NCBI GenBank assembly: GCA_015489815.1 | Contig: WFZA01000022.1 | Span: forward strand, 1-52,466 | Length of the DNA: 52,466 nucleotides | Reading direction: 5' to 3' | Origin: Caldisericales bacterium | Lineage (GTDB): Bacteria; Caldisericota; Caldisericia; Caldisericales; Caldisericaceae | Shown: positions 18,991 to 52,082 of the stretch, one piece after another | Position numbering within the stretch: the first letter of the stretch is position 1 | Layout of the letters: each line of letters begins with the position of its first letter | Program-made: the position numbers and the translations under genes | The notes under the pieces: generated by a model | Told to the model about the DNA's origin: nothing | The model's database searches: none | What the model saw: the letters and a program-made list of their open reading frames with translations, nothing else

Positions 18991-19560
18991 ATGAAACACA
19001 TAGGAGAAGTAATCACGGTTCGCTCTGATGTACTCGTTGCTGAGGGGGAGAGAAGTGCTCTTCCGCCTCTTGGGACTATCCTGAAAAGCGATCGTGGTGT
19101 TTTATGTCTCGTCGTTTCGCACTCTATAGACAACAAAATTCCTGGCCGTATGCCAATTGCATACGGAAAGAGCATAGAGCAACTGGAAAGAGAACAACCC
19201 CAGGTGTTTGCACTTATGAAGTGGATGTTTCAGGCGATTCCTTTTGGTACTTTAAGTGAAGATTCTGTAGAATTGTTTCTTAATAAGGTGGTAGAAATAC
19301 ATACATTATTATTCGAAACACGGAAGGAAGAAAGGGATCTCGTCTTTAAAGAATTGCGTTTTTTTGACTTTCTATTTTCTATTGATAAAAGTGTATTTCC
19401 ACAAAGAGATAAAATCATTGTATCGCTTGTTAACGCCTACTTGAACGATTTATTGGAAGTAAAGGAAGACGAATATATAAGAATTTTTTCTTATATATCA
19501 AAGATATTAAGAAACGATTACCAGACGCTTAAATATATTATGGATGGTGTAGGTATATGA
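18991..19560 (+). CDS. Conserved protein with HAS-barrel-like N-terminus, partner of HerA-like ATPase
   Basis: This 189-aa protein belongs to no family I can name. Its N-terminal 70 residues (IGEVITVRSDVLVAEGER, then LPPLGTILKS) read like the small beta-barrel seen at the start of HerA-type ATPases; the remainder is helical. It ends in an ATGA overlap with the HerA-like gene, so the two are translationally coupled and probably act together. It is much shorter than NurA and lacks NurA-like metal-binding motifs. The open frame extends upstream to 18817, but that part overlaps folD antisense and lacks a ribosome site; the extended -10 box puts the start at 18991. Confidence 0.65.
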   Translation: MKHIGEVITVRSDVLVAEGERSALPPLGTILKSDRGVLCLVVSHSIDNKIPGRMPIAYGKSIEQLEREQPQVFALMKWMFQAIPFGTLSEDSVELFLNKVVEIHTLLFETRKEERDLVFKELRFFDFLFSIDKSVFPQRDKIIVSLVNAYLNDLLEVKEDEYIRIFSYISKILRNDYQTLKYIMDGVGI

Positions 19561-21113
19561 ATGATTCAATAGGTTTCTTAAAGTCTGGTTCAATAGGCGA
19601 TGGGTTTTTAATCAGGCTGAATAAAACGGTTAACTCGGAATCGCTCCAGATAGGTGATTTTATCGTCGTTCAGGGAGACCTTTACGATTACTTTGGCATT
19701 ATAGAAGACATCCGAATAGGTTCTTCTAACGAGGACATATTTTTTAATCCTCCTGAGAATAAAGTCCAGAAGATTGCCGTAAAAGGTGCTATTACTTTTA
19801 GCGAATTGCTCGTTACACCGTATCTTATGATAGAGAAAGCAACTAATAGGGTAATCACTATAAAAACAATTCCGGAACACTTCTCGGATGCAAGGAAGGC
19901 AAACGAGCGCGACATCAGGATCGTATTTGGGGGGAACGCGGAAAAAGCATTTTATGTAGGCAGTCCTCTTACGATGGACGAGCAGATTTACATCGACCTT
20001 GAAAAACTTGCAAAGAGGAATAATGCGATTTTTGGCATTACAGGTTCTGGTAAAACATTTCTTGGAAGAATTATTTTTTCAGGCCTTATAAAACACGATG
20101 TTGCATCACTTCTTATTTTTGATATGCACAACGAGTACGGGCAATTTGCAAAAAGCGAGAAGAAAGGAAAGATTAAGTCCTTGAAAGGTTTGTTTGATGC
20201 TAAAGTAAAGGTATTCGATGTGTCTGATAAAAATAGCGATGCAGATGACTTTATTAAGATTCCATACAAATACATTACAGCAGCGGATGTTGCAATGCTT
20301 TCTTCGCTACTTTCCTATTCTCAGCATTCGGAAGAAACTGCTCGGATAATTAATAAGCGTTTTGGAGATAAGTGGTTGAAGCATGTTGAAGAGTTAAGAA
20401 GTGTGACCGAAGCAGAAAGAGAAGAAAAAGCGAAAGAATTGGGAGTAAACCCCTCATCTCTTTCGGCTCTTATCAGACATCTTGATAAACTCTTGAGTCT
20501 GGACTTTATACAGGATATTACCAAAGACGAAGATAGCAGTGTGAAAAAAATACTCCAATACCTTAAAAACGGTACTTCGGTCGTCGTGCAGTTTTCTGGC
20601 AAATATGCGAATAAACCGCTTGCGTACTTCGCCGTTGCAAATATCATTACACGAAGGATTCACGAGCTTTATGCAAGCGCAAGCGAAGAAGAAAGAAATA
20701 AAAGGATTATGATTGTAGTAGAAGAGGCGCACAAACTTCTTTCCAGCGATATAAAAGATAAAAACATATTTGGCACAATCGCACGTGAAATGAGAAAGTA
20801 CAATGTAACGCTTTTTGTAATAGACCAGAGGCCTTCAGAAATCGATTCTGAGGTTCTATCGCAGGTAGGCACGCGTTTTGTTATGCAGCTTATGGACGAG
20901 AAGGATATGGATGCCGTTTTTCAGGGAGTAGGCGGAGGGAGCAGGCTAAAGAAAATTCTCCGCACGCTGCAGCCTCAGGAGGTTTTGCTCTTTGGCTATG
21001 CAGTTATGGCGCCTGTTCCTATGCGTGTCAGGGAGTATGGCACGAATTTTTACGACGAGATGAAGGAAGGCAGCTCTGAACCTTCACCTGACGATGCAGA
21101 CAATCTTTATTGA
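19557..21113 (+). CDS. HerA-like (DUF87) ATPase
   Basis: The 518-aa protein has a HAS-barrel-like N-terminus (about 1-150), a Walker A motif FGITGSGKTFLGR near 160, the FDMHNEYGQF segment typical of HerA/VirB4-type motors near 187, and Walker B in RIMIVVEEAHKLL near 383. IDQRPSEIDSEVLSQVGTRF is the usual HerA sensor and arginine region. Such hexameric motors translocate DNA, usually with a nuclease such as NurA. No NurA gene is next to it; a 189-aa protein overlaps upstream and lgt follows. It is a DNA-repair or genome-maintenance motor by family; its actual partner is unknown. Confidence 0.88.
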   Translation: MNDSIGFLKSGSIGDGFLIRLNKTVNSESLQIGDFIVVQGDLYDYFGIIEDIRIGSSNEDIFFNPPENKVQKIAVKGAITFSELLVTPYLMIEKATNRVITIKTIPEHFSDARKANERDIRIVFGGNAEKAFYVGSPLTMDEQIYIDLEKLAKRNNAIFGITGSGKTFLGRIIFSGLIKHDVASLLIFDMHNEYGQFAKSEKKGKIKSLKGLFDAKVKVFDVSDKNSDADDFIKIPYKYITAADVAMLSSLLSYSQHSEETARIINKRFGDKWLKHVEELRSVTEAEREEKAKELGVNPSSLSALIRHLDKLLSLDFIQDITKDEDSSVKKILQYLKNGTSVVVQFSGKYANKPLAYFAVANIITRRIHELYASASEEERNKRIMIVVEEAHKLLSSDIKDKNIFGTIAREMRKYNVTLFVIDQRPSEIDSEVLSQVGTRFVMQLMDEKDMDAVFQGVGGGSRLKKILRTLQPQEVLLFGYAVMAPVPMRVREYGTNFYDEMKEGSSEPSPDDADNLY

Positions 21114-44141: not shown

Positions 44142-46328
44142 ATGGATGTAAAGGGAGCGATAGAATCTGTAAGAGGCACGAAAGAGGGAAAGTTAATTGT
44201 AGTTAAAGACGGAAGGAACACCTTTAGAGTAATTGCAGACAAAGAATACGATTTTCGGCCAGGAATAGGTGTTTCGTTTATTAATGTAAAAGAAGAAAAA
44301 CACTTTCTTGGGACGACTTACAAAGTGACTCCGGAAAGCATAGTTTCTACTTATACGAATGTCCCCGTACTTTACGAAGACCTACGGTATGCGCACTTTT
44401 GTGAGTATGCGCTTATTTTCTCATTTTTCGATGTGCGCAAAGAACGCAAAGAAAACAAAGAAGTTATGTTTTACAACGGTGCGAAGGGCAAATTTCAGGG
44501 AAATAGAATCGCGGAGTTTGCAAACAGATATCCAAAGGAATTGCGAGGCAAGTTTTCGTATAGGCCTGTAATGTTCTCTGAAAAGTCCGGCGTACTTTTG
44601 AGAAGCATTTTACACTTTGGCAAGTTTCCCGTGGTTTTTGACGGAGACGAAACGAAAGGCGTACTCGTTGCTTTGGAGGAAAATAAAAATAAGTTCGTTA
44701 CTCTTGACGAAGCGAGTGGAAAGATGAAGGAGCACTCAGTTACGCCAAAGGCCATATCGGAAGTAATGTCGCGTAAAAATGCTTTTGCCAGGAAACTTTT
44801 CTCTCCCGATCTGAAGGAATTCTGGCAAAAGGATATCGAAAACGATTGTTACTTTGAGTGTCCTTTAAAGGAATTTTGCAGAAAGGTGCACAGAGACGGC
44901 AAGAAAAGAGAGGAATTTGAACGCTACTTTGTAGATGCCGCTAAGGATGCTTTGAAGTATCGCTCTCTCCTGCTTAAAACAATAAAGAACGGTGAAAACC
45001 CGTTGAGATTGTCCACCCGCGTAGTACTGAAAGAAAAAGCTGACGAACCCGATAAAAGTGTTTATAAACTCGGTATTTTAAGTAACGAAGCAGCAATTAA
45101 AAGTGGAGAAGACTTCCTCGTAAGCGAGAAACCTCCTCTTGAGCGAAGAGTATTTGCAAAAAGTAAGAGTGTAAGTTTTAGAGAGATTATAGCAGAAAGC
45201 GCAGAGGGAATTCTTTCTCCGGAGAAAGTATCTCCTCTCCCACAGGCAGGCACGCACTTATATAAAGGATTATTCCAATACCTTTATTCAAATGTTTTCT
45301 CGGATGAATCAATAAGAGGTGCGCAGGTCAAAGTAAGTGAAGATAAACACTTTACTGACGATAAGGAACAGAACGAGGCAATAAATAAATTGTTGGGATT
45401 TTCTACCGCGTTTTGCTTGAAAGGCGAATATGGCACAGGAAAAAAGTTCGTTCTAAGGAAAGCATTCCAAGAGCTTTTGCAGAGGGGCAACACGGTTAGT
45501 ATCGCAGCGGAGTCGAGGAAGGAAGAAGCAGAGCAATTTTTCAGGGAAACACTTTCTCCGTGGTTTGAGAAAGGTAAAATTTCTGTTTATTCTGTAAACG
45601 ACCCGGCACTTTACGGCAGAAAAGGACTATTTGACTATGTGGCATTCTTATCCAACGGAACGGCAGACGAGAAGGCGGTAAAGTCTGTTATGGGGCTCTC
45701 AAAAAACTTTATTCTCTCTTCTCCAGGTGATTGCGAATTCCTTGAAAATCTACTGCCGAAATCTTCAAAGACCGTATTAAAAACAGAACATCGTTTTGGC
45801 GCTCACATTCTACACTTCCTTCAGCCCGTTTTATCTGACAAACTTTTCCAGAGTGACGATAAAGAATTTAAAGTATTGAATAAAGAAAACATCTCGCCGC
45901 AGTTTATAGAAGTAGTAAATCCTGAAAAGTATGTGCAGGAAATTTATGTGAAGGGGTATCATAGAGGTGTTAACAATCAGTGGAATGTAGAGGAAGCCTC
46001 GTTTATAGTAGAGGCAGTAAAAGAATTTGTAAAAGCAGGTATTGAGCGCAGAAATATTGGGGTGATCGTTCCGTATGAACGGCAGAAAGCATTGCTCGAC
46101 AGTCTGTTCCTGGATTCAAAAATACCTGACATTCTCGTATCTGAACCTCAGAGTGCAGTGGAAAAAGATGTAATATTTATTTCTTTTACAAATACGAAAA
46201 AAGTAGGCGGTGACTTCGTAGACGATGCCATGCTGAAGTCTGCGCTTACACGGGCGCGGTGCAAACTGCTGCTCGTTGGGCAGAAAGGTATATACAAAAG
46301 CTCGAAAGTGCTTTCAAATCTTCTGTAA
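44142..46328 (+). CDS. Dna2/Upf1-like superfamily 1 helicase with degenerate ATPase motifs
   Basis: This 728-aa protein reads as a Dna2/Upf1 relative. Its second half has a Q-like DDKEQNEAINKLL (406-418), Walker A GEYGTGKK (428-435, Lys where Thr/Ser is usual), a motif IV-like KTEHRFGAHILHFLQ (547-561), NIGVIVPYERQ (638-648) and the motif V-VI run AVEKDVIFISF and KSALTRARCKLLLVG (672-713). The Walker B position is FDYVAFLSNG (497-506) with no Asp-Glu, and motif III is also lost, so ATP hydrolysis is doubtful. In the first half C87 plus C236, C240 and C246 (DCYFECPLKEFC) resemble the Fe-S cysteines of Dna2/Cas4 nucleases, but no nuclease DxK motif is clear. It heads a plus-strand run that ends with an intact Fe-S nuclease. 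Confidence 0.7.
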   Translation: MDVKGAIESVRGTKEGKLIVVKDGRNTFRVIADKEYDFRPGIGVSFINVKEEKHFLGTTYKVTPESIVSTYTNVPVLYEDLRYAHFCEYALIFSFFDVRKERKENKEVMFYNGAKGKFQGNRIAEFANRYPKELRGKFSYRPVMFSEKSGVLLRSILHFGKFPVVFDGDETKGVLVALEENKNKFVTLDEASGKMKEHSVTPKAISEVMSRKNAFARKLFSPDLKEFWQKDIENDCYFECPLKEFCRKVHRDGKKREEFERYFVDAAKDALKYRSLLLKTIKNGENPLRLSTRVVLKEKADEPDKSVYKLGILSNEAAIKSGEDFLVSEKPPLERRVFAKSKSVSFREIIAESAEGILSPEKVSPLPQAGTHLYKGLFQYLYSNVFSDESIRGAQVKVSEDKHFTDDKEQNEAINKLLGFSTAFCLKGEYGTGKKFVLRKAFQELLQRGNTVSIAAESRKEEAEQFFRETLSPWFEKGKISVYSVNDPALYGRKGLFDYVAFLSNGTADEKAVKSVMGLSKNFILSSPGDCEFLENLLPKSSKTVLKTEHRFGAHILHFLQPVLSDKLFQSDDKEFKVLNKENISPQFIEVVNPEKYVQEIYVKGYHRGVNNQWNVEEASFIVEAVKEFVKAGIERRNIGVIVPYERQKALLDSLFLDSKIPDILVSEPQSAVEKDVIFISFTNTKKVGGDFVDDAMLKSALTRARCKLLLVGQKGIYKSSKVLSNLL

Positions 46329-46334
46329 GTAGAA

Positions 46335-47102
46335 ATGGGCACAGCTGAATACGATAGTAAAAAAGTTGTTTTTATTCCGGTAGAGAAAGTTTTGCCTTCA
46401 CCGTTTCAACCGCGTATGCACTTTGACGAGAAGTCTATTCTTGACCTTGCAACTTCTATTGAACACCTTGGCGTAATTCAGCCTATCGTCGTGCGAAAGA
46501 AAAGTGACTTCTTTGAACTCATTGCAGGAGAAAGACGGCTTGAAGCAGTAAAGTTTTTGAAGTGGGAAAAAATACCTGCGATCGTAAAAAATGTTTCTGA
46601 CATAGACGCTTTCCGTATGGCGGTTTCAGAAAACCTGAAGAGGGAAGATCTTAATCCGCTTGAGGTTGCAGGTGCAATTAAAAGTATGAAAGAGCGTTTT
46701 CACCTGACCGACAAACAGGTTGCAGAAATGCTTGGAATGAGCAGGCCGCAGGTGACGAATTATCTTAGAATATTAAAACTTCCGGAAAAAATTAAAAGTG
46801 CTTTGCGCAACGGTGAAATTTCCTTTGGGCACGCGCGGAGTTTACTTTCAGTAAGTGAAAGCGACGCAATTAAACTCTATAGAAAAATAGTAAAGTCCCG
46901 TCTTTCCGTGCGCGACACGGAAAAACTCGCAAGGAAACTCTCTCAAAAAGAAAGTCTTATTACAAAAACAGAGGAACTTTTAACAAAGGCACTTGGGACG
47001 AAAGTGAAAATCGTCGGAGGAAAAGATAGAGGTGAACTCCGTATTTCTTACTTTTCTGAAGACGAACTTGCCGAGATCGTAAAAAAACTTGCAAAGGATT
47101 AA
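46335..47102 (+). CDS. ParB/Spo0J-family DNA-binding CTPase
   Basis: The 255-aa protein has the ParB N-terminal domain (LPSPFQPRMHFDEKSILDLA, GVIQPIVVR) with the CTP-binding GERR motif in LIAGERRLEAVKFLKW, then SENLKREDLNPLE, the HTH MLGMSRPQVTNYLRILKLP and a short dimerisation tail. It is normal in length for a chromosomal ParB or Noc. No ParA gene adjoins it; it starts 6 nt past the helicase-like gene with a poor ribosome site, which suggests coupling. Chromosome segregation is the default role, but its neighbours are DNA-processing and NAD genes. Confidence 0.9.
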   Translation: MGTAEYDSKKVVFIPVEKVLPSPFQPRMHFDEKSILDLATSIEHLGVIQPIVVRKKSDFFELIAGERRLEAVKFLKWEKIPAIVKNVSDIDAFRMAVSENLKREDLNPLEVAGAIKSMKERFHLTDKQVAEMLGMSRPQVTNYLRILKLPEKIKSALRNGEISFGHARSLLSVSESDAIKLYRKIVKSRLSVRDTEKLARKLSQKESLITKTEELLTKALGTKVKIVGGKDRGELRISYFSEDELAEIVKKLAKD

Positions 47103-47144
47103 TTCAATAGTTTTTAACGGTCACTTTTTTTCTGAAAAAATTCG

Positions 47145-47172
47145 TTGCAGGAATAACTGCAAGCGGTATAAT
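47145..47172 (+). promoter_or_regulatory. Promoter of the NAD-kinase-like gene
   Basis: TTGCAG (47145-47150) and TATAAT (47167-47172) have 16-nt spacing. The -10 box sits inside a short dyad GCGG-TATAATAT-CCGC (47163-47178), and GGAGGT follows. Confidence 0.6.
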
Positions 47173-47186
47173 ATCCGCGGAGGTAA

Positions 47187-48152
47187 ATGGTGAAAATAGG
47201 TTTTATTGCGAATCCGGAATCTGGCAAAGACATACGAAGGATTGTTTCGGATGCGTTTACTTTTAACAACTTTGAGAAACTTAACATTATAAAGAGAATC
47301 GTCCGCATTGCACTTTCTAACGAGAGCACGGAATTTGTTTTTATGCCGGAACTCTTTGGCTTTGGTCAATATACGAAGGAAGAGTTTGGCAATAGAATAA
47401 AAGTCCTTGACTTTTCACCTTCAGGTGAAAGCGACACGGAAAGGGCTGCTGCGCTTATGGCAGAGAGTGGCGTGTGCTGCATCGTTACGCTTGGAGGCGA
47501 CGGGACGAACAGGCTCGTCGCAAAGAAAGCAGGAAGCGTCCCACTTATACCCGTTGCAACGGGTACGAACAACGCATTTCCGTTTACGACAGACGGTTCT
47601 GCAGTTGGTATGGTGCTCTACGCAATTTCAAAAATTGGAATAAAGCCGTCTGAACTAAAAAGGCAAAAACGCATTGAAATTTTCAGAGGCGACGAACTGA
47701 TAGACATCGCTCTGGTGGATGTTGCAGTTACTGCAGAAGAATTCGTTGGTTCGAAGGCAATTTTTGATGTTGACAAATTAAGGGAATTGTTTGTTACTTT
47801 TTCCCGGTGGGACAAAACAGGGCTTTCCTCGATATTTGCATTTTCAATGCCTGTTGGGCGTGATGTACCAATAGGTGGCCACTGCGTATTTGACGGGAAC
47901 GGGCGTGCTGTGAGTGCTCCCATTCTTCCTGGAAGACTCGTTCAGTTAAGAGTTCGTTCTCTGGAAAAAATTCCCGTTGACACTCCGTACAGGATTAAGT
48001 ATGTACCTTCGATTATTGCAGCGGACGGAGAGCGTATCGTAAAAGTGGATGGTGATAACTTTTCCGTTCGGGTCACGCAAAACGGGCCTTATGTAATTTC
48101 TGCAGAAAGCGTACTGGAGCGGGCCTGTAAAGAAAAAGTCTTTCTGGTATAA
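47187..48152 (+). CDS. ATP-NAD kinase-family (AcoX-like) protein
   Basis: The 321-aa protein begins KIGFIANPESGKDIRRIV and has the diacylglycerol/NAD-kinase signature TLGGDGTNRLVAKKAG near 106 and VATGTNNAFPF near 126. NAD kinases use the GGDGT motif to bind ATP; this length and the extra C-terminal part fit the AcoX-type subgroup, whose activity is less well known. ATG at 47187 or the adjacent GTG at 47190 may start it; the GTG has better spacing to GGAGGT. The next gene encodes a nicotinamidase-like protein, which points to NAD(P) metabolism. Confidence 0.78.
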   Translation: MVKIGFIANPESGKDIRRIVSDAFTFNNFEKLNIIKRIVRIALSNESTEFVFMPELFGFGQYTKEEFGNRIKVLDFSPSGESDTERAAALMAESGVCCIVTLGGDGTNRLVAKKAGSVPLIPVATGTNNAFPFTTDGSAVGMVLYAISKIGIKPSELKRQKRIEIFRGDELIDIALVDVAVTAEEFVGSKAIFDVDKLRELFVTFSRWDKTGLSSIFAFSMPVGRDVPIGGHCVFDGNGRAVSAPILPGRLVQLRVRSLEKIPVDTPYRIKYVPSIIAADGERIVKVDGDNFSVRVTQNGPYVISAESVLERACKEKVFLV

Positions 48153-48153
48153 T
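48145..48153 (+). promoter_or_regulatory. Extended -10 promoter of the nicotinamidase-like gene
   Basis: TGGTATAAT overlaps the stop codon of the upstream gene and lies 19 nt before the ATG at 48173, with GGAGGTGATG between. It could also serve the downstream cassette. Confidence 0.55.
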
Positions 48154-48172
48154 AACGATTGGAGGTGATGTG

Positions 48173-48688
48173 ATGAAAAAGGCTCTCCTTATCGTCGATA
48201 TGCTGAACGACTTCGTCGATAAAAAAGGCGCTTTAAAGGTGGATGATGCAGAAGAGATCGTGCCCTACATAAAAGGTTTTAAAGTGGCATTTAAACGGGA
48301 AGGCGGGAAAGTTTTCTACCTCTGCGATTCCCACAAAGAAAACGACCCCGAATTTGACCTGTGGCCGCGGCACTGCGTGGAGGGCTCGTGGGGTGCGGAA
48401 GTCGTTCCTGCACTGAAACCTGACCCTGACGACACCGTGATTAAAAAGACTACATACTCTGGTTTTTACGGCACAGACCTCGACGAAAAGCTCAAAGCAA
48501 TGGGGATAGACACGCTTTACATTACAGGCGTTGCAATGAACATATGTGTGCACTATACGGCTGCAGATGCAAGGATGCGTGGTTATAATGTGATCGTTCC
48601 GCTGATGGGTGTAAAAGGACTTACCAAAGAAGACGAGGATTACATGAAAAAGCAGTTTGTAAGTGTACTAAAAGTAAAACTCATATAA
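48173..48688 (+). CDS. Nicotinamidase-like cysteine hydrolase (isochorismatase family)
   Basis: The 171-aa protein has the nicotinamidase triad: Asp in LLIVDMLNDFVD, Lys in IKKTTYSGFYGT, and Cys in TGVAMNICVHYTA. The metal ligands DSH and the later WPRHCVEGSWGAEV are also present, which favours PncA over isochorismatase. It would convert nicotinamide to nicotinate for NAD salvage. The ATG at 48173 has GGAGGTGATGTG before it. It lies 20 nt past the NAD-kinase-like gene and 10 nt before the winged-helix gene. Confidence 0.85.
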   Translation: MKKALLIVDMLNDFVDKKGALKVDDAEEIVPYIKGFKVAFKREGGKVFYLCDSHKENDPEFDLWPRHCVEGSWGAEVVPALKPDPDDTVIKKTTYSGFYGTDLDEKLKAMGIDTLYITGVAMNICVHYTAADARMRGYNVIVPLMGVKGLTKEDEDYMKKQFVSVLKVKLI

Positions 48689-48698
48689 AGGGGGAAAG

Positions 48699-49364
48699 AT
48701 GAAAACAAAAGAAGAGATGTTGAAACTTATCAGGGAGTCTGGTAAAAAAGGAATGACATTAACCGAGCTTTCCGGAACGAGAAAACGAAGTAGCGCGGAA
48801 TACAAACTTACAAAACAATTTCTTGCAGACCTTGAATCTCAGCACCTTATAGTGAAGTCTGGCAGTAGGTACTATCTTGCAGGCGTAAGGGGTAAAAAGG
48901 CGCCAAAGAAAAAAGTAAACTACATCACAAAAGAGGAATTTGAAGAAGTCTTGAGGGAAGTATACAAAGACCTTTCTGCTTTGAAAAACGAGATTGACCG
49001 TGTTTACGAATATGTGGACGAAGTGTTCCTTGTAACGCGTAAAAAAAGTACAGGAGAAACAAAAGGTGCAAAGGACTTTCCCGATGAGGAAGAAATGCGT
49101 ATTGCGTACGACAACATCAACGAGCGCGAAAATGCTGGCGATTCTGTTTCTATTGCAGAGTTTAAAAGAGAGTTAGAAAAAATGGGTTTCCGTTTTACAG
49201 ACGAAGAGATGAATAAAAAATTGCTCGAAATGGATAAAAATGAGGTTATCTATCTGCAGGAGGCGAATAATCCCGAAACGCTTGAGGAGAGTGAGCGAAA
49301 GAGAGGCATAAACGATAAGGAAAGAGGTTTCCTCTTTTACATTACATGGATAAAAAGACTTTAG
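48699..49364 (+). CDS. Winged-helix protein of the ATPase-nuclease cassette
   Basis: I do not recognise the family of this 221-aa protein. Residues 5-62 look like a winged helix (EEMLKLIRESGKKGMTLTEL, KQFLADLESQHLIVKSGSRYYL), residues 75-125 form a charged coiled coil (ITKEEFEEVLREVYKDL), and 130-215 look like a second winged helix (SIAEFKRELEKMGFRFTDEE, NKLL..NEVIYLQEA) ending RGFLFYITWIKRL. The gene overlaps the AAA ATPase gene by 19 nt. A DNA-binding or adaptor role for the ATPase is my inference. AAGGGGG precedes the ATG. Confidence 0.7.
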   Translation: MKTKEEMLKLIRESGKKGMTLTELSGTRKRSSAEYKLTKQFLADLESQHLIVKSGSRYYLAGVRGKKAPKKKVNYITKEEFEEVLREVYKDLSALKNEIDRVYEYVDEVFLVTRKKSTGETKGAKDFPDEEEMRIAYDNINERENAGDSVSIAEFKRELEKMGFRFTDEEMNKKLLEMDKNEVIYLQEANNPETLEESERKRGINDKERGFLFYITWIKRL

Positions 49365-51316
49365 CGGAGAAGTTTAAAGCCCTTTCACCGTACAAAAACA
49401 GTATAATAAGGACTCCGTGGGACAGCGAAGTCGTTGATGTAAAGACGATCCACAGGAGGGCGTTTGAAAAGCTCACTGATGCACTGGATACGGTAAAGTC
49501 AAGTAGGGCATCGCTTATTTTTGTGCTTCAGGGTGAGCCAGGCTCTGGAAAGTCACACTTTTTGTGGCGCGTTGCACGCAGCGCTGAAAGTAAAAAATTT
49601 CTTTTCGTAAACATAGTGCCCTATACATACATAAAGCGAATTACATTTTACACGATACTTGAAAGTGCAGTGGAAAGCCTTGAGAAGAAACATCCGAATT
49701 TGCGCTCGCGCCCGATCGACCACCTTATTGGTTATGCTTTGCAGGAGGGTGCACGGCTGATAAATACGAAGGCACTGCGCGATGCTACTGCAGCTTCCAT
49801 CGTTGGAATGATCAGGGACAACAAAAGAATGCCGTTCGTCGCAAAAAGTCTTTTTAACAGTATACCTGAGAACAAAAAAGGGCTTATTCTTAATGTAATG
49901 GCACGCAAACTGTCCGCGCGTTATGTGGAATATCCCCGTTACTTTTTTACTCTTTTGCTTGCTCTTGAAGATAAAGAGAAAGCGCCTCTTGCACTTGAAC
50001 TGATGAAAGGCGAAACGCTTGGCAAAAAAGAACTACAGAAGATAGGGCTTGACGAACGCTTTGCACTTGGCGAGAGAGGAGCATTTAATGTATTGTGTTC
50101 GTTGATAAAGTTTTCTCCGTTTCCGTTTATTATTTCAGTAGATCAGGTAGAGACGCTGGACAGGCATCTGGATTCAGCAGGTATAGAGAGGTTTTTTGAA
50201 AACATACTTAGCATATACAACAATACGAATAACTCGTTGTTTCTTCTTTCTGTGCAGACACAAACATTTAAAAAGTGGACGAAGTTTCTGGCAAAAGACA
50301 TTTTGGACAGGCTTTCAGAGAGAACGACGATTTTGCCGCTCAACCTTGAACAGGCAAAGGAAATCGTAAAAGCGCGCAACAGGTACTACTTTAGTAAAAT
50401 CGGCACTGTGCCTGACGATCCTTGCTTTCCTTTTACTGAAAGCCAGATAGAAACCCTTTACAGAAAAGGCAATAAAAATCCGAGAAAACTTATCAAAGCG
50501 CTGGACTACCTGCTGGAAAGCGGTGAGCTTACGGAACAGAAAGATACTGTCCAGGGTAGTTTTAAAAATTACATTCGGAATGTAGAATACAGCGACAGTG
50601 AATTTAGGAAAGAATTTACGGATTTACTTGCAAAAATCGTAGAAGGAAACGATGTTCTGAAGGAAACTCCTACATACGCAATTCTGAAACTCGGAAAAAC
50701 AGGATTTGCAGTAAATAATTCGAAGCATTCTTTGTACAGTTGTGTCAGCCACCTGTCGCGATTTATCAGAAAGCGCACGATTAGATTTGCACTGCTTCTA
50801 AGAAGCGACAGCTTACCGGTGCGTGCTACTGCGAAGAAAACGAATGAACTACTCAGAAAGCACAAAATAAAAGTCGTTTACTATTCTACACAGGTAGGCG
50901 AAGTCCTTATTACGGTTTCGAAGATGCTGAGAGATGCAGAATCTGGAGATCTGGACATAGAATTGAAAGAAGTGGAGCGCTTTGCCAGGGGAAAAATTGA
51001 GGAAGCGCTTCCAGAGGTTGCGCGGGCAGTTTTCGCAGGTATCAGTGAAGTGCCTACAAAAGTAAGTGTAGGGAATAGAAAACCTGTTCACGCTAAAAAG
51101 AGGAATAATCCCAGGAAAAACGACCTGAATGCGGTCGAAAAGCAGATAGAAAAAATTCTTGAAACGCGCAAAATTATTTCTTACGACAAACTTTTAAGTC
51201 TTTTAAAGAAAAATGCAAAGGAAGTTGACGCTGCGCTTTTTAACCTTGCGAGCCGTAATAAAGTAAGAATTATTGATAGAAAGTATGGAGAAAAGTGGGT
51301 CTTTAGCGGATTGTGA
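49346..51316 (+). CDS. AAA/Orc-like P-loop ATPase of the ATPase-nuclease cassette
   Basis: The 656-aa protein has a Walker A motif LQGEPGSGKSHFLWRVA (K69) and a Walker B FIISVDQVETLD (D266, Q267, E269), the DQxE form common in STAND/Orc-like AAA proteins. A sensor-like FLLSVQTQTF follows near 299 and LSERTTILPLNLEQAKEIVKAR near 320 resembles the lid of Orc/Cdc6-type ATPases. Residues 430-560 form a further domain without motifs I know, and the last 75 residues form a winged helix (ISYDKLLSLLKKNAKEVDAA). Its start lies inside the preceding gene and its end inside the nuclease gene, so the three are translated as a unit. It resembles defence ATPases in style but matches no named system by eye. 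Confidence 0.75.
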   Translation: MDKKTLAEKFKALSPYKNSIIRTPWDSEVVDVKTIHRRAFEKLTDALDTVKSSRASLIFVLQGEPGSGKSHFLWRVARSAESKKFLFVNIVPYTYIKRITFYTILESAVESLEKKHPNLRSRPIDHLIGYALQEGARLINTKALRDATAASIVGMIRDNKRMPFVAKSLFNSIPENKKGLILNVMARKLSARYVEYPRYFFTLLLALEDKEKAPLALELMKGETLGKKELQKIGLDERFALGERGAFNVLCSLIKFSPFPFIISVDQVETLDRHLDSAGIERFFENILSIYNNTNNSLFLLSVQTQTFKKWTKFLAKDILDRLSERTTILPLNLEQAKEIVKARNRYYFSKIGTVPDDPCFPFTESQIETLYRKGNKNPRKLIKALDYLLESGELTEQKDTVQGSFKNYIRNVEYSDSEFRKEFTDLLAKIVEGNDVLKETPTYAILKLGKTGFAVNNSKHSLYSCVSHLSRFIRKRTIRFALLLRSDSLPVRATAKKTNELLRKHKIKVVYYSTQVGEVLITVSKMLRDAESGDLDIELKEVERFARGKIEEALPEVARAVFAGISEVPTKVSVGNRKPVHAKKRNNPRKNDLNAVEKQIEKILETRKIISYDKLLSLLKKNAKEVDAALFNLASRNKVRIIDRKYGEKWVFSGL

Positions 51317-52082
51317 CTTTTCGGTAAGTGATGTCGTTACTGCTTTTAAGTGTCCGTTGCAGTTCTACTTTTCGAGGAAAGGAATAGTTGCCCACTTTTA
51401 CTACGGTGGAAAAAGTGTGGGAAGTTTTGTCCACAAAGTGCTTTCTGAATTTGCAAACTTGCTCGTTACCCATACACTGTTCGAGAGTGAAAACGAGTTG
51501 AATGTCGTTGAAAATACACTCTACAGAAGTTTTTACAATGTGGCAATTAAGAGTAAAAGTTACAGAACGAACCTGGAAGATGCCTGGCAGTACATTAAGT
51601 CAATAGGAGCGTACTTTGAAGGTATTACGGTAGGGAAAAGCACTTCTGAAATTCGAGACATGTTTATCCTTTCTGAGCGTTCGTTCTCGGTAAATTTTTT
51701 CGGCACGCAAATATGTGGCCGCTTTGACCTGTTGTTGCGTGATGAGAGAAAAATTAGGATTGTAGATTACAAAACGCGCGACAGAGATCCTGAAGTAGAT
51801 GCCGTGCAAATTGCGCTATACAAGTATGCCGTGAAGCAAATTACTGGTGTAGATGCAGAGCCAGTGCTTCTTTACATTCTGGACGGTGAGTTAAAAGAAG
51901 AAGTGTTTACAGAAGAAGAATATTCACTCGTTATCTCTGGCATTCGAAAACAGATTAAAGACATGAAAGATTTTCTTTCGGGTAGGAAAGTCCCGGAACG
52001 GACAGTCGACCGCACTCTTTGCAATCACTGTTCTTTGAGGACGAGTTGCAAGGTACTGCGAAAGAAGTTTTTTGGTCTATAA
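51285..52082 (+). CDS. PD-(D/E)XK nuclease with 4Fe-4S cysteines (Cas4/AddB/RecB-type)
   Basis: The 265-aa protein has every expected element of an Fe-S RecB-family nuclease: C23 in FSVSDVVTAFKCPLQFYFS, H50 in GSFVHKVL, D148 in GRFDLL, D161 and K163 in IRIVDYKTR, Q175 and Y179 in QIALYKYAV, and C246, C249, C255 in CNHCSLRTSC. Such enzymes cut single-stranded DNA ends. ATG 51285 overlaps the ATPase end by 32 nt; a TTG at 51273 would add four residues. No helicase is fused. No cas1 or cas2 is near, so a CRISPR role is not supported; a DNA-end-processing partner of the AAA ATPase is more likely. Confidence 0.88.
   Translation: MEKSGSLADCDFSVSDVVTAFKCPLQFYFSRKGIVAHFYYGGKSVGSFVHKVLSEFANLLVTHTLFESENELNVVENTLYRSFYNVAIKSKSYRTNLEDAWQYIKSIGAYFEGITVGKSTSEIRDMFILSERSFSVNFFGTQICGRFDLLLRDERKIRIVDYKTRDRDPEVDAVQIALYKYAVKQITGVDAEPVLLYILDGELKEEVFTEEEYSLVISGIRKQIKDMKDFLSGRKVPERTVDRTLCNHCSLRTSCKVLRKKFFGL

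What the first reader, a model, noticed from the sequence alone, without database searches (positions are those of the whole stretch)
48699..52082. Three-gene cassette: winged-helix protein, AAA ATPase, Fe-S PD-(D/E)XK nuclease
The genes overlap by 19 and 32 nt, so the products are probably made in fixed proportion. The ATPase keeps Walker A and a DQxE Walker B; the nuclease keeps all catalytic residues and four Fe-S cysteines. The first protein has DNA-binding folds at both ends. I can match this set to no named repair or defence system (it lacks cas1/cas2, BREX, AddA and NurA marks). It could be a DNA-end-processing or anti-phage machine driven by an Orc-like ATPase.
Basis: partly seen in the sequence, partly recalled or inferred. 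Interest (0 to 1): 0.78.

Follow-up and report, generated by a model that had tools for sequence, protein, structure and literature searches.

The report
ORC-like ATPase with DNA-cutting nuclease cassette
Three overlapping genes in a little-known heat-loving bacterium encode a DNA-binding protein, a replication-initiator-like ATP-driven switch and a DNA-cutting enzyme; distant relatives add a DNA-pumping motor, so this looks like a motor-less, long-inherited version of a predicted but untested DNA-restriction machine.

Summary
In detail: WH 48699-49364, ATPase 49346-51316 and Fe-S PD-(D/E)XK nuclease 51285-52082 overlap, in a Caldisericaceae genome. The ATPase is in 11 of 18 family genomes, always with the nuclease next to it; WH is next to it in 10 of 11 (the eleventh contig ends). 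The ATPase models as an ORC/Cdc6-type AAA+ core, an alpha/beta domain placed like an inactive restriction-endonuclease domain, and a C-terminal winged helix. Profile comparison ties the three proteins (WH only moderately) to an operon of the same order in probable cyanobacteria, where the nuclease is fused to an FtsK motor. That architecture is published as Orc/CDC6 'HerA/FtsK capture' systems (PMC10853773), predicted counter-invader machines. Here the motor is missing: no HerA/FtsK beside the cassette, and no FtsK above cut-off in 18 genomes. The cassette is inherited vertically and was lost in at least one genus. So: a new variant of a known kind. The relationship is well supported; function (restriction of invading DNA versus DNA-end repair) is inferred and open. 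Walker B has Gln instead of the catalytic Glu, suggesting an ATP switch rather than a fast motor.

The parts
48699..49364 (+). WH protein, 221 aa: N-terminal wHTH (about 1-62), long helix (78-116), C-terminal wHTH (about 127-220) with conserved YDN.N ... ITW.KR
   Evidence: ORF; 16-row alignment; model; fold matches; moderate HMM/HMM match of its C-terminal part to the WH in the same operon position elsewhere
49346..51316 (+). ORC/Cdc6-type AAA+ ATPase, 656 aa: AAA+ about 1-400 (Walker A 63-70, D266-Q267, R322, R380), alpha/beta domain about 417-535 read as an inactive REase-like domain, C-terminal wHTH 589-656
51285..52082 (+). PD-(D/E)XK (PDDEXK_1, Cas4-like) nuclease, 265 aa from ATG 51285, with four predicted Fe-S cysteines; upstream TTG 51273 possible
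   Evidence: Pfam PF12705 E 6.7e-22; invariant motifs in 11 of 11 rows; match to the nuclease domain of the FtsK fusion
49346..49364 (+). 19-nt WH/ATPase gene overlap; 16, 19 or 22 nt in 11 of 11 pairs
48170..48688 (+). Isochorismatase/nicotinamidase-family gene, conserved immediate upstream neighbour in the family; not taken as part of the machine
   Evidence: Pfam PF00857; synteny

Best explanation
The cassette is a motor-less, vertically inherited variant of the Orc/CDC6-ATPase + nuclease modules known as 'HerA/FtsK capture' systems. Shown by computation: a two-wHTH protein, an ORC-like AAA+ ATPase with an extra alpha/beta domain and C-terminal wHTH, and a separate Fe-S-type PD-(D/E)XK nuclease, related in the same order to an operon of probable cyanobacteria. 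Inferred mechanism: the WH protein and the ATPase's own wHTH bind DNA; the ATPase closes on duplex DNA as an ATP-bound ring or clamp (Walker B has Gln in place of the catalytic Glu, so a slow switch rather than a fast motor); the clamp recruits or licenses the nuclease to cut or resect nearby DNA ends or replication intermediates. The most likely target is invading DNA, as proposed for the motor-bearing relatives; without FtsK the variant would act where it loads, or use another motor in trans.
For: HMM/HMM match to the other operon's ATPase (prob 99.9, E 3.7e-31, 558 columns, nearly the whole length), nuclease domain (prob 98.7, E 2.5e-16, 256 columns) and WH C-terminal domain (prob 83.5, E 8.3e-6, 87 columns), same gene order (pairwise E-values, not from a database search). 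ORC/Cdc6 are the closest solved folds: 1fnn Cdc6 Z 15.4, 3.5 A over 244 residues. The published architecture places an iREase between AAA+ core and C-terminal wHTH and includes an active REase, HerA/FtsK and in a subset a multi-wHTH protein. A second operon in the same phylum, WH - ORC-like ATPase - 484-495 aa protein, has no FtsK beside it (4 of 5 such loci; DUF1802 in the 2 third proteins scanned) and matches in ATPase (prob 98.9) and WH (prob 95.4), so a motor-less three-gene layout recurs with another putative nuclease. ATPase and nuclease/FtsK genes, after a hypothetical gene of WH size (not tested), lie on a conjugative plasmid. The residue after Walker B D266 is Q in 11 of 11 family rows and an amide in 15 of 17 readable relatives.
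Against: No HerA/FtsK beside the cassette and no FtsK above the Pfam cut-off in 18 of 18 family genomes, so a feature of the named systems is missing. In the one genome whose neighbours were Pfam-scanned they are not defence genes: OPT transporter, peptidase S58, AhpC/TSA, nicotinamidase, LexA, a metallophosphatase (L058). Gene trees broadly follow a core gene, and dN/dS resembles upstream genes; this fits housekeeping as well. No phage record carries the ATPase (0 of 50,697 each). WH homology is only moderate, covers its C-terminal part, and the WH HMM hit only one of the two FtsK-operon WH proteins. The iREase reading rests on secondary-structure order and position, not on a fold search of its own. 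Foldseek E-values for the whole ATPase are modest (best 5.3e-5, query TM 0.24).
Confidence: 0.5

Rival explanations
1. A housekeeping DNA-end-processing (repair/resection) machine: the ORC-like ATPase clamps DNA ends or stalled forks and directs the Fe-S nuclease, in a family that seems to lack AddAB/RecBCD.
For: Vertical inheritance and conserved place beside nicotinamidase; purifying selection like upstream genes; among PDDEXK_1 hits only one AddB/RecB-sized frame in 18 genomes (950 aa in G011, nuclease domain only, helicases not searched); non-defence neighbours in the genome scanned; lexA tail-to-tail with the nuclease gene in that genome.
Against: Genera g6 and g8 lack the ATPase and show no AddAB/RecB-sized PDDEXK_1 protein, so it is dispensable; a separate ~250-aa PDDEXK_1 nuclease, in 15 of 15 genomes fetched, looks like the family's core one; the cassette evolves faster than that gene (mean identity 0.37-0.42 against 0.55-0.56); the relatives are patchy and once on a conjugative plasmid.
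Confidence: 0.3
2. A replication- or segregation-linked factor: the ORC-like ATPase and WH bind specific chromosomal sites and the nuclease resolves intermediates.
For: ORC/Cdc6 fold; WH C-terminal domain resembles the ORC1 winged helix (Z about 8); a ParA-like gene (read by eye) downstream of the FtsK fusion in L095, L135, L136 and L143; ParB 1.6 kb upstream in the window.
Against: Homologues of the window's ParB were found near the cassette only in the window's genus; the ATPase is absent from genera g6 and g8, so not essential for replication.
Confidence: 0.12
3. A solo-Cas4 or degenerate CRISPR adaptation remnant with unrelated neighbours.
For: Pfam Cas_Cas4 37.3 bits, above its cut-off of 22.7; TIGR00372 cas4 E 9.1e-14 and several PADLOC Cas4 models.
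Against: TIGR00372 score 51.7 is below its cut-off of 65; PF12705 fits better (79.1 bits); no cas1/cas2 among window proteins scanned; fixed pairing with the ATPase in 11 of 11 genomes.
Confidence: 0.03

Closest known systems
Orc/CDC6-type 'HerA/FtsK capture' systems (Rakesh, Aravind, Krishnan, NAR 2024, PMC10853773)
   Same: ORC/CDC6 AAA+ ATPase with a domain inserted before the C-terminal wHTH, active-type PD-(D/E)XK nuclease, multi-wHTH protein gene; related operon in the same order in probable cyanobacteria
   Different: No HerA/FtsK beside the cassette; nuclease is a separate single-domain protein; chromosomal and vertical in this family rather than mobile
WH - ORC-like ATPase - DUF1802 protein operon (loci L146, L147, L149, L150)
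   Same: Three genes, same order, no FtsK beside them; related ATPase and WH
   Different: Third protein is 484-495 aa, with DUF1802 in the two scanned and, by eye in one (P0001), a D..ECK nuclease-like motif; not a Cas4-like Fe-S protein; Walker B is DE in 3 of 3 readable rows
DndFGH / SspFGH restriction modules
   Same: ATPase plus nuclease plus HerA/FtsK theme; the FtsK part of the related fusion matches SspH (E 2.5e-66) and its ATPase weakly DndF (E 0.0014)
   Different: No Dnd or Ssp model is listed for the three window proteins at E up to 1
BREX BrxC
   Same: ORC/Cdc6 AAA+ followed by wHTH, alpha/beta and wHTH domains (PMC12839542, passages read); BrxC among Foldseek hits (9zdx, rank 25)
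   Different: BrxC_BrxD Pfam score 19.2, below the 22.2 cut-off; no PglZ among the 7 window genes scanned from 44142 to 52082
Cas4 / RecB-type solo nucleases (PF12705, PF01930)
   Same: PD-(D/E)XK motifs with four predicted Fe-S cysteines
   Different: Below the NCBIfam cas4 cut-off; partner is an ORC-like ATPase, not Cas1/2 or a UvrD helicase

Membership tests
Orc/CDC6-type HerA/FtsK capture system | ORC/CDC6-clade AAA+ ATPase | tested here: met
   Model pLDDT 87.6; Cdc6/ORC lead the structural matches; related to the ATPase of the FtsK-bearing operon
Orc/CDC6-type HerA/FtsK capture system | Inactive REase domain between AAA+ core and C-terminal wHTH | tested here: inconclusive
   Position and a-b-b-b-a-b-a-b order at 417-535 fit, and the HMM/HMM alignment runs through it; the domain was not folded or searched alone
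Orc/CDC6-type HerA/FtsK capture system | C-terminal wHTH on the ATPase | tested here: met
   Model residues 589-656; sub-cut-off Sul7s and DUF5805 matches there
Orc/CDC6-type HerA/FtsK capture system | Active REase gene | tested here: met
   Catalytic motif residues invariant in 11 of 11 rows; activity not tested; which of the paper's two REase families is unknown
Orc/CDC6-type HerA/FtsK capture system | HerA/FtsK translocase in the operon | tested here: not met
   FtsK above cut-off in 0 of 18 genomes (one sub-cut-off match in G002; the control rang in 10 of 14 genomes). HerA-type genes, in 16 of 18 genomes over cut-off, lie on other contigs than the cassette or 28-61 kb away (window 19557-21113, G001, G007), and are over cut-off in 3 of 5 g6 genomes, which all lack the ATPase
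Orc/CDC6-type HerA/FtsK capture system | Mobile gene neighbourhood | tested here: not met
   Conserved synteny, and gene trees broadly concordant with a core gene in Caldisericaceae
CRISPR Cas4 | Score above curated Cas4 cut-offs | tested here: inconclusive
   Above for Pfam PF01930 (37.3 against 22.7), below for NCBIfam TIGR00372 (51.7 against 65)
CRISPR Cas4 | cas1/cas2 or CRISPR array nearby | tested here: inconclusive
   No cas1/cas2 among window proteins scanned; not all window proteins were scanned and no CRISPR-array search was run
BREX | BrxC above cut-off plus PglZ | tested here: not met
   PF10923 19.2 bits against 22.2; no PglZ among the 7 window genes scanned from 44142 to 52082
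HerA-NurA | NurA nuclease beside a HerA motor | tested here: not met
   Nuclease is PF12705, no NurA hit; HerA not adjacent
AddAB/RecBCD | Nuclease fused to or beside an SF1 helicase in the cassette | tested here: not met
   No helicase family over cut-off in the three proteins; homologues of the SF1 helicase at 44142-46328 are near the cassette only in the window's genus
DndFGH / SspFGH | Match to PADLOC Dnd or Ssp models | tested here: not met
   None listed for the three proteins at E up to 1; more distant homology is not excluded

The most novel reading that the evidence does not exclude
An ORC-like, ATP-switched nuclease that works without any DNA-pumping motor of its own has been kept by vertical descent through most of a bacterial family with no detectable FtsK and almost no AddAB/RecBCD-sized nuclease, and serves as its DNA-end-processing machine; either a domesticated restriction module or the housekeeping form from which motor-equipped capture systems arose.
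Probability: 0.25. Interest if true: 0.7.

Novelty: new variant of a known kind. Interest (0 to 1): 0.45.

Why it matters
The Orc/CDC6 capture systems are predictions from sequence; the passages I read report no experiment on them. A minimal, motor-less, three-gene version separates the ATPase-nuclease core from the FtsK motor and makes the core testable: does an ORC-type switch license an Fe-S nuclease by itself? It also shows such a module settled in the chromosome through much of a bacterial family, which bears on how defence modules and housekeeping DNA-processing machines exchange parts.

Tried and rejected
Plain family scans (Pfam, NCBIfam, PADLOC, PHROGs) do not name the set: the WH protein has no match over a curated cut-off; the ATPase has only generic AAA_16 and KAP over cut-off; the nuclease has PF12705 and Cas_Cas4 over cut-off, with weaker PADLOC matches to Cas4 and the Druantia nuclease DruK. 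Sequence search of solved structures gave nothing below E 0.01 for ATPase or nuclease and only weak Sso10a-type hits for WH (best E 0.0036).

The upstream SF1 helicase and ParB were considered as further parts and rejected: their homologues sit by the cassette only in the window's genus (window and L014). HerA in the window was considered as a motor in trans; it is also present in genomes that lack the ATPase (G008 and 3 of 5 g6 genomes), so it is not a specific partner. JetC in PADLOC for the WH protein (E 2.4e-5) is taken as a coiled-coil match. The weak ATPase hits in G029, G095, G235 and similar cover part of the profile and were not used as relatives. The one genome-contig scan found 4 loci, titled Caldisericaceae or Caldiserica.

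Limits. Gene maps are mechanical ORFs, so starts are approximate. In one search nuclease rows were cut at a Walker-motif string; rows without that exact string went in nearly whole. One search read Walker B in 17 of 18 rows of the FtsK-operon ATPases (L141 missed), 10 of 11 family rows (G005 missed by the script but present in the alignment) and 3 of 4 of the second operon. A second WH-ATPase copy in G009 (L059) is truncated and was left out of A1. In the trees several forks are open, some rows are long, and G003 and G004 are placed differently in different trees, below the starred level. dN/dS is from one genome pair. Figures of PMC10853773 are not held and its supplement was not opened, so whether Caldisericaceae are in its datasets is unknown. 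A text search (three of five words) listed 12 papers, none holding 'Caldisericum'.
Full report
WHAT IS THERE. The window is contig C22 of a 1.29-Mb, 77.9%-complete genome; its nearest relatives on record are Caldisericaceae MAGs, one with an ATPase 95% identical. The WH/ATPase overlap is 16, 19 or 22 nt in 11 of 11 pairs (10 main copies, one truncated second copy), always in the same relative frame. dN/dS to the same-genus genome is 0.069 (WH), 0.108 (ATPase) and 0.071 (nuclease), against 0.049-0.119 for the four upstream genes.

CONSERVATION IN THE FAMILY. Of 18 family genomes, 11 have the ATPase. In all 11 the nuclease follows directly; the WH gene precedes it in 10 of 11 (the G005 contig ends inside the ATPase), and the nicotinamidase gene precedes WH in 9 of those 10 (the G009 contig ends). 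Seven genomes lack the ATPase: five of genus g6, one of g8, and G017 (56% complete). Five of the seven (G006, G010, G012, G016, G008) keep nicotinamidase-WH, and tblastn finds no ATPase or cassette nuclease on the stretches read (in G008 only 1 kb follows, and its WH is shortened). In the four g6 genomes read, a gene with an FRG domain (Pfam-scanned in one, the others 88-96% identical) follows WH. Its homologue directly follows the nuclease, overlapping it, in G002 and G005, and lies 4.7 kb beyond it in G001. So g6 looks like loss of just the ATPase and nuclease between WH and FRG. Gene trees of ATPase, nuclease, WH and nicotinamidase broadly agree with a core PDDEXK_1 nuclease gene elsewhere in the chromosome (rank correlations of pairwise identity 0.87, 0.71, 0.76, 0.81), though several forks are unresolved and G003/G004 are placed differently. 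The cassette proteins evolve faster than that gene (mean identities 0.39, 0.37, 0.42 against 0.55-0.56). I read this as vertical inheritance with loss, not recent mobility.

STRUCTURE. The ATPase model (pLDDT 87.6) has an AAA+ core whose closest solved folds are Cdc6/ORC (1fnn Z 15.4, 3.5 A over 244 residues), with TnsC (13.8) and RdrA (13.3) below; Foldseek E-values are modest (best 5.3e-5). Then come helices, an a-b-b-b-a-b-a-b domain (417-535) and a wHTH (589-656). Walker B reads D-Q: Q267 is invariant in the 11-row alignment; the FtsK-operon ATPases have Q (8), N (7) or E (2) in 17 readable rows of 18. An amide there commonly traps ATP in AAA+ proteins (recalled), so I read the ATPase as a switch; E269, two residues on, could still serve as the base. 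WH is modelled with two wHTHs and a long helix (pLDDT 76, pTM 0.44); its C-terminal wHTH resembles the ORC1 winged helix and linker histone (Z about 8, near the level of common folds).

RELATIVES. A profile of the ATPase searched in 386 genomes matched 22, 11 of them outside the family; the best four are G374, G243, G099 and G150. In G243 (L095) the order is WH, ATPase, then one protein with 3'-5' exonuclease, PDDEXK_1, FtsK-alpha and FtsK domains; G374 (L094) has the same layout by HMM hits and by eye. Of 146 genomes of that phylum 40 matched the ATPase, 19 with E below 1e-100. Among 18 strong loci looked at (15, 3) the nuclease-FtsK gene is next to the ATPase in 9 and one ORF away in another; the other 8 have no nuclease beside it. 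A WH gene is recognised in 15 of 18. The exonuclease domain is in 8 of 9 fusions tested. HMM/HMM comparison covers nearly the whole ATPase (E 3.7e-31), the nuclease (E 2.5e-16) and the C-terminal part of WH (E 8.3e-6). One copy is on a conjugative Pseudanabaena plasmid, the only one of 72,556 plasmid records matched by the ATPase; no phage record of 50,697 is. With a wider profile, 32 of 385 genomes (partly the same ones) matched, most by a short stretch around the P-loop. A second operon in the same phylum, WH - ATPase - 484-495 aa protein (DUF1802 in the two scanned), has no FtsK beside it either.

COMPARISON WITH WHAT IS KNOWN. Rakesh, Aravind and Krishnan (PMC10853773; abstract, sections 22 and 26 and passages read; figures and supplement not seen) describe neighbourhoods with an Orc/CDC6 ATPase, an inactive REase inserted before its C-terminal wHTH, an active REase, a HerA/FtsK and in subsets a 2-4 wHTH protein or a fused 3'-5' exonuclease, and propose that they intercept invading DNA. 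The FtsK-fusion operon fits that description closely. The Caldisericaceae cassette shares the ATPase architecture, nuclease and wHTH protein but fails the HerA/FtsK feature: no FtsK above cut-off in 18 genomes (the control rang in 10 of 14 known genomes, 8 over cut-off, so FtsK-free or missed genomes are not rare), and HerA encoded away from the cassette and present where the ATPase is not. I therefore call it a variant, not a member. PMC12839542 (passages) describes a comparable AAA+, wHTH, alpha/beta, wHTH layout for BrxC. PMC5704561 (passages) covers PF12705 Cas4-like nucleases and their helicase partners and, in the passages seen, no ORC-like partner. A Synechococcus elongatus transposon screen (PMC10653904, passages) found that a Cas4-like nuclease and another PD-(D/E)XK protein limit a foreign plasmid, a lead that this nuclease class can restrict plasmids; I did not test whether they are related to this cassette.

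HOW IT LIKELY WORKS. Shown: domain make-up, conservation, homology, intact nuclease motifs. Inferred: DNA binding by WH and ATPase wHTHs, ATP-dependent ring or clamp, recruitment of the Fe-S nuclease, target. Published reasoning and the plasmid copy favour invading DNA; vertical inheritance, non-defence neighbours in the genome scanned and the near-absence of AddB/RecB-sized PDDEXK_1 proteins (one 950-aa frame, in G011) favour end repair. I put restriction ahead (about 0.5 against 0.3), as ATPase and nuclease can be lost and the relatives are patchy. The family relationship itself I hold at about 0.85. The mends made on checking (named-taxon caveats, Cas4 cut-off, HerA counts, plasmid WH untested) did not change these odds.

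Noticed in passing
window 44142-46328: SF1 helicase (AAA_12, IGHMBP2-like) with a CYFECPLKEFC cysteine stretch, perhaps Dna2-like with a degenerate Fe-S nuclease part (by eye); beside a ParB/Noc gene, near the cassette only in the window's genus.
   Followed up: partly
window 19557-21113: HerA translocase (DUF87) without a recognisable NurA neighbour, between an unknown 247-aa ORF and lgt; a HerA-type gene over cut-off is in 16 of 18 family genomes.
   Followed up: partly
L057:1662-2453, L054:4488-5294, L021:658-1467, L014:17410-18213: FRG-domain gene: directly after the nuclease in G002 and G005, 4.7 kb beyond it in G001, and after WH in four g6 genomes, as if ATPase and nuclease had been deleted between them.
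   Followed up: partly
18 Caldisericaceae genomes: No FtsK above the Pfam cut-off in any; how chromosome dimers are handled is unclear. The control also stayed silent in 4 of 14 known genomes.
   Followed up: no
L146, L147, L149, L150: Operon WH - ORC-like ATPase - 484-495 aa protein (DUF1802 in the two scanned; nuclease-like D..ECK motif by eye in P0001) in probable cyanobacteria; perhaps an undescribed restriction operon.
   Followed up: partly
L059:270-1085 (G009): Second WH-ATPase copy whose ATPase frame diverges after about residue 169; duplicate remnant or assembly artefact.
   Followed up: partly
L131, L133, L096: Tandem ATPases after one gene in WH position; in each pair one copy has D-N and the other D-Q at Walker B (L131, L133; L096 by eye).
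   Followed up: no
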